A DNA stretch of 64,000 nucleotides from a virus, in the IMG/VR virus record IMGVR_UViG_3300042542_003555, positions 96,984 through 160,983 of that record. One strand, given 5' to 3'. Under the pieces are notes generated by a model, which saw only the letters and a list, made by a program, of their open reading frames with translations, was not told where the DNA came from and ran no database searches. Both the position numbers and the translations under genes were made by a program. This document shows, piece after piece, positions 60,767 to 62,828 of this stretch; the stretch's first letter is position 1; the number at the start of each line of letters is the position of its first letter.

Positions 60767-60852
60767 TGGTGGGTGCTCTCCGATTCGAACAGAGAAGGCC
60801 TAGACAACGGATTTACAGTCCGCCCCCGATACCATTACGGGACTAAACACCC
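60767..60852 (-). tRNA. tRNA-Tyr(GTA)
   Basis: Loop CTGTAAA, a class II variable arm, acceptor GGGTG start, and encoded CCA. 86 bases. Confidence 0.92.
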
Positions 60853-60859
60853 TAAAACT

Positions 60860-60934
60860 TGGCTCCGGAGGTTGGGATCGAACCAACGACATATGGATTA
60901 ACAGTCCACCGTTCTACCACTGAACTACACCGGA
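60860..60934 (-). tRNA. tRNA-Asn(GTT)
   Basis: Loop CTGTTAA, acceptor TCCGGTG, G73 and encoded CCA. Confidence 0.92.
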
Positions 60935-60941
60935 ATAAATT

Positions 60942-61018
60942 TGGCGACACTTAGGGAATTCGAATCCCTGACCTCTGCCGTGACAGGGCAGCGTTCTAAC
61001 CAACTGAACTAAAGTGCC
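60942..61018 (-). tRNA. tRNA-Asp(GTC)
   Basis: Loop CTGTCAC, acceptor GGCACTT, G73 and encoded CCA. Downstream neighbour of RNA element B. Confidence 0.92.
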
Positions 61019-61020
61019 AT

Positions 61021-61229
61021 AATAATATGGTGATTGGACGCCACGCCAACTTTCTGCTTACCACAAGGATGCCTTTCGGCTTCGCATTACTGGGTTGTTT
61101 CAGCGCACAGCCACTATACAGTGACCAAATCCCTTACCTTGCTTCTTCACCATATTGAAACACACTGGGACTCCATTGGAGTGAATTATCTTCGGAACAA
61201 CCCTTAGAACCAATGTGTTTCAATATGGT
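61021..61229 (-). ncRNA. Structured RNA element B between tRNA-Lys and tRNA-Asp
   Basis: A 16-base perfect stem ACCATATTGAAACACA (61149-61164) with TGTGTTTCAATATGGT (61214-61229) extends to 20 bases if one G-U pair on the minus strand is allowed. The upstream arm includes the CCA of tRNA-Lys. Inside is an ACTCC/GGAGT hairpin. A pseudoknot may form between 61196-61203 in the loop and 61092-61099 downstream (GGGTTGTT with AACAACCC). A GCC-GAAA-GGC tetraloop hairpin and a TTGG/CCAA hairpin follow. Confidence 0.72.
61149..61229. repeat. Inverted repeat closing RNA element B
   Basis: 16 of 16 bases pair (61149-61164 with 61214-61229); four more allow one wobble. It covers the tRNA-Lys CCA tail. 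Confidence 0.9.
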
Positions 61230-61300
61230 AGGTGCGGAGAATTTCGAAATCTCGACTTACCGGTTAAAAGCCGGTTACTCTGCCTCTGAGTTACGCACCC
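61226..61300 (-). tRNA. tRNA-Lys(TTT)
   Basis: Stem CCGGC with loop TTTTAAC region giving TTT, acceptor GGGTGCG/CGCACCT (G1-U72), and encoded CCA. It lies between structured elements A and B. Confidence 0.9.
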
Positions 61301-61774
61301 ATTATCTTATCACTCTTGTCACTATCCATAACAGGACTCCTTTTTAAAAAATTAATCTTGCTTAGGCTACTTGTTTTCCACGCAAGCCCCTATGCTGAGT
61401 TGTTACCCTGTCCACATTATGTTGAGCATTTGTCACGCATAATGAACGCTGCTATGTTGTTTGAAACACCGGAAACGCCGATTTCGCAGAGTTTATGTTT
61501 CGCTGACGGTGCCATAGCCACCGGGACTCTCTCGTTTACCACACGCTACTTTCAGGAAAGTAGTAACCGGAACTTATATGGTATAATCTACCAAGCATAT
61601 TGTGCTTGTATCACAGTTAGTTATACCATATTAAAGTATTATCTGCTCAATTTAGGAAATTGGTGCGCTTGCCATCCATAGCCGAGAGCGGTTATATTAG
61701 GATCAGTCGCCGGCTGCTTTGACCCGAATAGTGTATGCGTCCATACACGATACCCTGATAATACTTTAATATGG
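61301..61774 (-). ncRNA. Large structured RNA element A between tRNA-Glu and tRNA-Lys
   Basis: 474 bases with no ORF having a ribosome site. An 18-base perfect stem (61626-61643 with 61757-61774) closes a 113-base loop; its 5' arm starts with the CCA of tRNA-Glu. Further stems: 61731-61737/61742-61748, 61648-61653/61657-61662, 61580-61586/61621-61627 enclosing 61592-61597/61603-61608, 61546-61552/61557-61563 and 61507-61511/61519-61523. The dense structure strongly suggests an ornate non-coding RNA; it may join element B across tRNA-Lys. Confidence 0.75.
61626..61774. repeat. Inverted repeat closing RNA element A
   Basis: CCATATTAAAGTATTATC (61626-61643) and GATAATACTTTAATATGG (61757-61774) pair over all 18 bases. 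Confidence 0.92.
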
Positions 61775-61846
61775 CACACCCAACCGGATTCGAACCGGTG
61801 TTACTGCCGTGAAAGGGCAATGTCCTGACCACTAGACGATGGGTGC
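61772..61846 (-). tRNA. tRNA-Glu(TTC)
   Basis: Loop CTTTCAC, acceptor GCACCCA/TGGGTGT, G73 and encoded CCA. Its CCA tail is part of the closing stem of element A. Confidence 0.92.
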
Positions 61847-61890
61847 ATCGTATTGCTAAATTGTTAAAGAAACTCAACTACAGAAACATC

Positions 61891-61919
61891 ATTGTACACT
61901 GGCTCAATCGTTTTGTCAA
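61891..61919 (-). promoter_or_regulatory. Sigma70 promoter inside the tRNA array
   Basis: TTGACA (61914-61919), 17 bases, TACAAT (61891-61896), ending 45 bases before tRNA-Glu. It would drive tRNA-Glu, elements A and B and tRNAs beyond. Two hairpins precede it after tRNA-Cys (GTTGC/GCAAC and GTTGTA/TACAAC). Confidence 0.82.
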
Positions 61920-62614: not shown

Positions 62615-62689
62615 TGGGGTGTCTAACGAGTACCGACCTCGTACCTACTCTTTCACAGAGAGTAATGCTACCACTACACCATAGACACC
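62615..62689 (-). tRNA. tRNA-His(GTG)
   Basis: Loop CTGTGAA, extra G at position -1, C73 and encoded CCA. T-loop GTCGGTA departs from TTCGANN. Confidence 0.85.
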
Positions 62690-62691
62690 AC

Positions 62692-62765
62692 TGGCAGGGA
62701 CATTAGGATTCGAACCTAAACTAACAGAGTCAAAGTCTGCGGTGCTGCCGTTACACTATGTCCCA
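62692..62765 (-). tRNA. tRNA-Gln(TTG)
   Basis: Loop CTTTGAC, weak T1-T72 mismatch as usual for a Gln weak first pair, G73 and encoded CCA. First tRNA of the array after the terminator. Confidence 0.9.
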
Positions 62766-62773
62766 ATATAAAC

Positions 62774-62802
62774 AAAAAACCCCTAGTTTTTACGCTAGGG
62801 GT
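62774..62802 (-). terminator. Intrinsic terminator
   Basis: Stem ACCCCTAG/CTAGGGGT (62779-62786 with 62795-62802), then a U run on the minus strand. It ends the unit of the 31-codon gene; tRNAs beyond need readthrough or another start. Confidence 0.92.
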
Positions 62803-62828
62803 CTTGTGTTTAGATTAAGATTTCTAGT

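What the first reader, a model, noticed from the sequence alone, without database searches (positions are those of the whole stretch)
61021..61774. Possible giant structured RNA split around tRNA-Lys
Two dense structured spacers (61301-61774 and 61021-61229) lie on either side of tRNA-Lys. They hold an 18-base and a 16-base perfect stem, at least six more hairpins, a GAAA tetraloop and a probable 8-base pseudoknot (61196-61203 with 61092-61099). The full run is about 750 nt. From established knowledge, GOLLD and ROOL RNAs are of similar size, are phage-linked, sit by or around tRNAs, and form multimeric cages. Membership of either family, or of a new one, is inference.
Basis: partly seen in the sequence, partly recalled or inferred. 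Interest (0 to 1): 0.82.

Follow-up and report, generated by a model that had tools for sequence, protein, structure and literature searches.

The report
New knotted RNA in phage tRNA arrays
Between two tRNA genes of an uncultured T4-like phage lies one member of an apparently undescribed family of ~200-letter knotted RNAs, found next to tRNAs in many large environmental phages but in no searched cultured phage, with an unknown and probably translation-related job.

Summary
The structure is real; "one giant RNA split around tRNA-Lys" is not. Relatives show the spacers are assembled from independent modules. The Lys-Asp spacer is only a 34-nt hairpin in most relatives. The Glu-Lys spacer holds two recurring RNAs. 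(1) A 219-nt core (61355-61573, minus). A covariance model trained only on distant relatives finds it end to end (E 1.8e-13). nhmmer places it in 277 fetched viral loci (199 distinct sequences). It has conserved hairpins, a well supported pseudoknot (P3/P4), two weaker ones, and very strong covariation (225 doubly changed cells against 73±7 shuffled; 0/500). (2) A 145-nt element (61627-61771), closed by a 15-pair covarying stem; its motif occurs in at least 119 viral contigs. G·U over A·C excess and 2029/0 co-directional tRNAs fix the strand. Neither element matches an Rfam family; GOLLD and ROOL are not found here. GOLLD sits as a separate gene in the same array of some relatives, so the core is not GOLLD. 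The core usually begins 0-5 nt after a tRNA CCA or a stop codon. Blastn finds no relative in 50,697 phage records. I read it as a tRNA-like RNA gene, cut out of the tRNA polycistron and acting in trans, probably on translation. Expression and function are untested.

The parts
61355..61573 (-). Core RNA (type A): full-length match to covariance model R1
   Evidence: cmsearch E=1.8e-13, 49.6 bits, model 1-204/204, filters off; the model was trained only on type B relatives. Covariation within type A: 80 doubly changed cells against 32 +/- 4 shuffled.
61544..61563 (-). P1 hairpin of the core, CUACUUU/AAAGUAG
   Evidence: 100% paired in 29 type A sequences, 4 of 7 pairs with changes on both sides; 92% paired in type B
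61501..61523 (-). P3 stem CGGU/ACCG, with the 5' strand of P4 (GCUAUG) in its loop: pseudoknot
   Evidence: coordinates
61447..61456 (-). 3' strand of P4 (CAUAGC), crossing P3
   Evidence: 91% paired, covarying to CUAGG/CCUAG in relatives
61412..61444 (-). P6 stem CAUUAUG/CAUAAUG, its 3' strand ending at the conserved GGAC
   Evidence: 6 of 7 pairs change on both sides across type A, 74% of cells paired
61395..61413 (-). Most conserved stretch, GGACAGGGUAACAACUCAG (small stem around UAAC)
   Evidence: Found by pattern in 97 viral stretches. A search not keyed on it still finds variants GGACRGNGUAACNNCYCAG with compensating changes.
61359..61394 (-). P7/P8 hairpin with conserved GGGC...GURGC internal loop
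   Evidence: 95-100% paired P7, many doubly changed pairs
61627..61771 (-). Element A: second recurring structured RNA; its closing stem extends into the CCA of tRNA-Glu (61626-61643 / 61757-61774)
   Evidence: 15 relatives: 96% paired, 57 doubly changed cells against 16 +/- 3 shuffled, 0/500; motif in at least 119 viral contigs
61573..61631 (-). Small hairpin between element A and the core (11-bp stem AUAUGGUAUAA)
   Evidence: recurs in L065, L310
61291..61343 (-). Conserved Shine-Dalgarno plus mini-ORF MDSDKSDKIMGA*, ATG at 61329, overlapping the 5' end of tRNA-Lys
61226..61300 (-). tRNA-Lys (UUU)
   Evidence: ARAGORN, Rfam
61149..61229 (-). Inter-tRNA hairpin C (16-bp perfect stem, including the ACCA of tRNA-Lys)
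   Evidence: replaces the 34-nt plain hairpin of relatives
61019..61156 (-). Hairpin element D (stem AAUAUGGUGA/UCACCAUAUU, GAAA tetraloop at 61071-61080)
   Evidence: 8 other distinct sequences at about 82-89% identity, in other contexts too
61772..61846 (-). tRNA-Glu (UUC), upstream neighbour

Best explanation
The Glu-Lys spacer carries an RNA gene (61355-61573, minus), one member of a widespread family of ~200-nt pseudoknotted RNAs in the tRNA arrays of large uncultured phages. It is transcribed within the tRNA polycistron (inferred from orientation and packing). It is cut out by the enzymes that trim tRNAs: its 5' end comes from maturation of the upstream gene's 3' end, its 3' end from processing at the next hairpin or tRNA (inferred). 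It then persists as a stable, compactly folded RNA that acts in trans, most likely on the host translation machinery that the phage tRNAs also serve (inferred, weakest step). Beside it lie an unrelated structured element (61627-61771) and variable inter-tRNA hairpins. These are separate modules, not domains of one giant RNA.
For: Shown: a type-B-trained covariance model finds the window RNA over its full length at E=1.8e-13. Covariation: type B 225 doubly changed cells against 73+/-7 shuffled and at most 64 when partners are slid, 0/500 shuffles; type A 80 against 32+/-4. Model hits reach E 1e-50 to 1e-61 across the fetched sets. 18 of 20 large virus records that I picked carry it, 8 with two copies. 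Strand: G-U exceeds A-C in all three alignments (117:54, 73:36, 25:2), and all 2029 tRNAs counted around 147 distinct copies lie on its strand. Gene-like packing: 69 copies start within 12 nt of a tRNA 3' end and 39 more within 20 nt of an in-frame stop codon, mostly 1-5 nt. Gain and loss as a unit: type B lies between tRNA-Thr and tRNA-Gly in L008 and L012, while that spacer is 3 nt in the window.
Against: There is no expression data, so processing and stability are inferred. A 3'-terminal position after unrelated genes would also suit a cis-acting element. No trait points specifically to the ribosome; the translation role rests on company (tRNAs, GOLLD). Two of the three proposed pseudoknots are only moderately supported in type B (67% and 59% of cells paired). 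The search patterns bias which relatives were collected. Loci from one contig were counted separately in some tallies.
Confidence: 0.6

Rival explanations
1. Cis-acting 3'-end or processing element: the fold blocks 3'-to-5' exonucleases or positions nucleases, so protecting or maturing the tRNA or mRNA directly upstream. It has no role as a free RNA.
For: It starts 0-5 nt after either a tRNA CCA or a stop codon. Inter-tRNA hairpins in the same arrays pair the CCA of one tRNA with the start of the next, so cis processing elements probably do exist here.
Against: About 200 nt with crossing helices and long invariant unpaired stretches is far more than a barrier needs, and plain 34-nt hairpins occupy the neighbouring site. 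There are only 1-2 copies per genome among 20 or more tRNAs. Two paralogous types are kept side by side in 31 loci.
Confidence: 0.22
2. A self-cleaving or otherwise catalytic RNA that makes the exact 3' end of the upstream gene.
For: Pseudoknotted core, invariant loop nucleotides, and a 5' boundary at the end of the upstream gene.
Against: No match to any Rfam family, known ribozymes included. Most known self-cleaving ribozymes are shorter and leave a 2',3'-cyclic phosphate, unsuitable for a tRNA (established knowledge). Its placement after protein stop codons fits poorly.
Confidence: 0.08
3. Part of one giant RNA of the GOLLD/ROOL type spanning both spacers.
For: Same habitat and roughly right total size.
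Against: No GOLLD or ROOL match. GOLLD is present as a separate gene in four relatives. The Lys-Asp half is absent from close relatives that keep the core.
Confidence: 0.03
4. Degenerate spacer DNA (decayed tRNAs, recombination debris) without function.
For: Array spacers change fast and some hairpins contain tRNA fragments (L012). One spacer folds no better than shuffled.
Against: Compensatory change far beyond shuffles and slid controls in three independent alignments.
Confidence: 0.02

Closest known systems
GOLLD RNA (Rfam RF02032)
   Same: Structured RNA of unknown function in phages, beside or among tRNA genes, environmental origin (PMC12286853); found in the same arrays as the new RNA in 4 of 21 records
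   Different: About 800 nt (416-position model) against ~205 nt; no sequence or model match; the two coexist as separate genes
ROOL RNA (Rfam RF03087)
   Same: Phage RNA near tRNA islands with multiple pseudoknots (PMC12286853)
   Different: 574-position model; no match in this record or in 20 relatives
T4 stable RNAs C and D (species 1 and 2)
   Same: 119-139-nt RNAs inside a phage tRNA cluster, same strand, abutting the preceding tRNA; function unknown (established knowledge)
   Different: The covariance model does not match them (1.7 bits, E 2.3) nor any part of the T4 record
Dicistrovirus IGR IRES (analogy of shape only)
   Same: About 200 nt, chain of pseudoknots (PMC8002689)
   Different: Eukaryotic RNA viruses; cis-acting; no homology claimed or tested

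Membership tests
GOLLD (RF02032) | Match to the Rfam covariance model at gathering score | tested here: not met
   No match at E<=10 in 60900-61900 or 61350-61580, nor in the whole record. The same model scores 198 bits in L107, a positive control.
GOLLD (RF02032) | Location in or next to phage tRNA array | tested here: met
   23 tRNAs in the window, all on the same strand
GOLLD (RF02032) | Length of ~400-800 nt or more as a single RNA | tested here: not met
   The conserved unit is ~205-220 nt; the second spacer is not conserved with it
ROOL (RF03087) | Match to the Rfam covariance model | tested here: not met
GOLLD/ROOL-like cage RNAs | Homo-oligomeric cage | not testable with these tools
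   Needs cryo-EM or native gel
T4 RNA C/D | Detectable homology | tested here: not met
T4 RNA C/D | Gene within a tRNA cluster, abutting the preceding tRNA, same strand | tested here: met
   In the window itself two other modules sit between tRNA-Glu and the core.
T4 RNA C/D | Stable RNA in infected cells | not testable with these tools
   No transcriptome
Any Rfam 15 family | Match at gathering score, or a credible match at E<=10 | tested here: not met
   none. on a type B member: only four weak matches (E 0.2 or worse) to short unrelated models, one spanning 102 nt.
New core RNA family (this report) | Full-length covariance-model match, conserved GGAC..UAAC..CAG and P7/P8 with GGGC/GURGC, tRNA array location | tested here: met

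The most novel reading that the evidence does not exclude
A previously undescribed class of large-phage noncoding RNA, with two co-existing paralogous types, that acts in trans with a biochemical job of its own in translation takeover or counter-defence. It would be carried with other structured RNA modules (element A, hairpin D, sometimes GOLLD) as an RNA toolkit of the tRNA array.
Probability: 0.5. Interest if true: 0.85.

Novelty: new variant of a known kind. Interest (0 to 1): 0.72.

Why it matters
Phage tRNA arrays are known to hold a few mysterious stable RNAs (T4 RNA C and D, GOLLD, ROOL). This adds at least one large family, and a second well supported one, neither of which matched any Rfam 15 family. 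The core is absent from the cultured phages searched, yet common in environmental large-phage contigs. With a covariance model, two subtypes and several natural sites lacking the RNA, the question of what structured RNAs do inside tRNA arrays can be tested directly.

Tried and rejected
GOLLD/ROOL membership: rejected. One 750-nt RNA: rejected from relatives. The 8-bp pseudoknot: close to chance level and not conserved. Folding energy as evidence: not decisive. T4 RNA C/D homology: none. Blastn against cultured phages with the spacers and with two type B cores: no related match; E. coli genomes: none. Host genomes: exact 19-mer absent; two hits to a second pattern are not members. First alignment A1 contained a wrong reference (L230, my error) and was discarded. 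A mistyped degenerate pattern returned nothing and was replaced by a correct one. A weak second hit in the window (62657-62810, 13 bits) and a 99-nt hit in a cyanophage (17.8 bits) are judged false. The weak mir-653 hit is just the long hairpin. Literature searches gave no description; open-licence papers only, and paper supplements were not searched.

Full report
What was checked. The window is part of a 160,983-base virus record whose minus strand carries a long tRNA array (23 tRNAs called). The phage is T4-like: its DNA polymerase, UvsX and ribonucleotide reductase match the phage families, but its polymerase is only ~51% identical to the best cultured match, cyanophages. Folding energy alone does not distinguish the 471-nt spacer from shuffled sequence (z -0.9) and does so only modestly for the 207-nt spacer (z -2.8).

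The two spacers are not one RNA. Thirteen loci from viral contigs share the neighbouring peptidase gene. In most of them the Lys-Asp spacer is a 34-nt hairpin, and in L012 a 76-nt one, not 207 nt. The Glu-Lys spacer is 283-402 nt there instead of 471, and only its 3' part is shared with the window. The window's extra pieces are independent modules. Element A (61627-61771) sits where relatives have a plain hairpin. Hairpin D (61019-61156) recurs directly upstream of the core in other phages (for example L322: D at 53-172, core from 175).

The core RNA. A 16-base conserved string from the Glu-Lys spacer hit 97 viral stretches, and nearly all have the same structured context with compensating changes. 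A second, independent pattern from the middle of the RNA gave 97 stretches, whose version of the first string varies in a paired manner, which removes the circularity. On a 30-sequence alignment that contains no window-type sequence, a 54-pair structure scored 87% standard pairs. 36 of 54 pairs have changes on both sides, and 225 cells are doubly changed against 73±7 in shuffles and at most 64 when partners are slid; 0 of 500 shuffles reached the observed values. A covariance model built from that alignment finds window 61355-61573, minus strand, end to end at E=1.8e-13 with filters off. The window copy is thus a distant subtype ('type A') of the same family. Type A has its own covariation: 80 doubly changed cells against 32±4.

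Architecture (5' to 3'). A short C-rich start; hairpin P1, whose loop can pair back to the start (moderate support, 67% of cells paired in type B); stem P2 (clear in type B); stem P3 crossed by P4 (a pseudoknot; P3 97.5% paired in type B); variable hairpin P5; stem P6 (in type B also a crossed pair, 59% paired); the conserved GGACRGNGUAACNNCYCAG; and a P7/P8 hairpin with GGGC...GURGC, ending in CA. The P3/P4 pseudoknot is well supported; the other two are tentative.

Strand and gene-like packing. In all three alignments G·U outnumbers A·C at paired positions (117:54, 73:36, 25:2), which fixes the transcribed strand as the tRNA strand. Around 147 distinct copies, all 2029 tRNAs counted are on the same strand as the RNA. 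69 copies start within 12 nt of a tRNA end and 39 more within 20 nt of an in-frame stop codon, mostly 1-5 nt. In the window, element A and a small hairpin lie between tRNA-Glu and the core. The RNA is therefore packed like another tRNA gene. The steps from here (co-transcription, release by tRNA-processing enzymes, action in trans, a role in translation) are inference.

Distribution. Across the fetched loci nhmmer profiles find 138 distinct type B and 61 distinct type A sequences in 277 loci, with both types on one locus in 31 (some loci come from the same contig). 18 of 20 large virus records (163-365 kb) that I picked have it, 8 with two copies. The family was not found by blastn in 50,697 phage records, by one exact 19-mer in 84,980 bacterial and archaeal genomes, or in E. 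coli genomes. A remote relative below blastn's reach cannot be excluded. Between tRNA-Thr and tRNA-Gly, type B is present in L008 and L012 but the window has a 3-nt spacer, so the RNA comes and goes as a unit.

Element A. Fifteen relatives share its 15-pair closing stem, internal hairpin and third stem: 96% paired, 57 doubly changed cells against 16±3, 0/500. At least 119 viral contigs hold its motif, and 79 of the core loci also hold element A. It is a second structured RNA for which I found no Rfam match.

Relation to known RNAs. Rfam 15 gives no match to the core, even at E<=10; a type B member gives only weak matches to short unrelated models. GOLLD is absent from the window's record but is a separate gene in the same array of four relatives, for instance 442 nt from a core copy in G016. 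ROOL was not found. GOLLD and ROOL are phage-linked, tRNA-proximal RNAs of unknown function that form cages, and GOLLD has been reported to bind ribosomes in pull-downs (PMC12286853). T4 RNA C and D are the classic stable RNAs in a phage tRNA cluster and have the same placement, but are not detectably related. The new RNA thus belongs to the same kind of thing, phage tRNA-array RNAs, without belonging to any of those families.

Verdict. I am very confident that a conserved structured RNA is there, confident that it is not GOLLD, ROOL or a 750-nt RNA, fairly confident that it is undescribed (limited by Rfam 15 and an open-licence paper library), and much less sure of what it does.

Noticed in passing
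window 61291-61343 (minus): A Shine-Dalgarno plus 12-codon ORF (MDSDKSDKIMGA*) overlaps the start of tRNA-Lys(UUU). The same AAGGAG..ATGGATAGTGACAAGAGTG block recurs in ~17 distinct contexts, nearly all directly ahead of a tRNA with a TTT anticodon; in L033 it starts a longer ORF. Possibly a Lys-related leader peptide.
   Followed up: partly
window 61626-61643/61757-61774, 61149-61164/61214-61229; L003 5593-5626, L004 4281-4314: Inter-tRNA hairpins pair the CCA end of one tRNA with the TGG of the hairpin end or the GG start of the next tRNA, so both tRNA ends sit in one helix; perhaps a shared processing substrate.
   Followed up: partly
L012 4334-4410 (Glu-Lys hairpin): A hairpin loop contains a tRNA-like fragment (GGTTCGATTCC), suggesting decayed tRNAs or captured fragments in spacer loops.
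   Followed up: no
31 loci, e.g. L012, L024, L032, L290: Type A and type B core RNAs coexist as paralogues in one array, always on the same strand in the pairs listed, some only a few hundred nt apart.
   Followed up: partly
G002, G015, G016, G021 (L037, L235, L290, L107): GOLLD RNA at ~200 bits in large environmental phages that also carry the new RNA.
   Followed up: partly
window 60771-60855 (minus): A probable tRNA-Tyr (GTA) not called by ARAGORN in the window but called at the same place in L003 and L004.
   Followed up: no
window 61019-61156 (minus): Hairpin element D is itself a recurring module (8 other distinct sequences), several times directly upstream of a core RNA.
   Followed up: partly
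L066 8800-9455 and many type B loci: When the core follows a protein gene it is often the same ~190-aa coiled-coil-like protein (KQKLNDEVLELNIKTEIPLSDETVALLQAEGLL*) with no credible PHROG match.
   Followed up: partly
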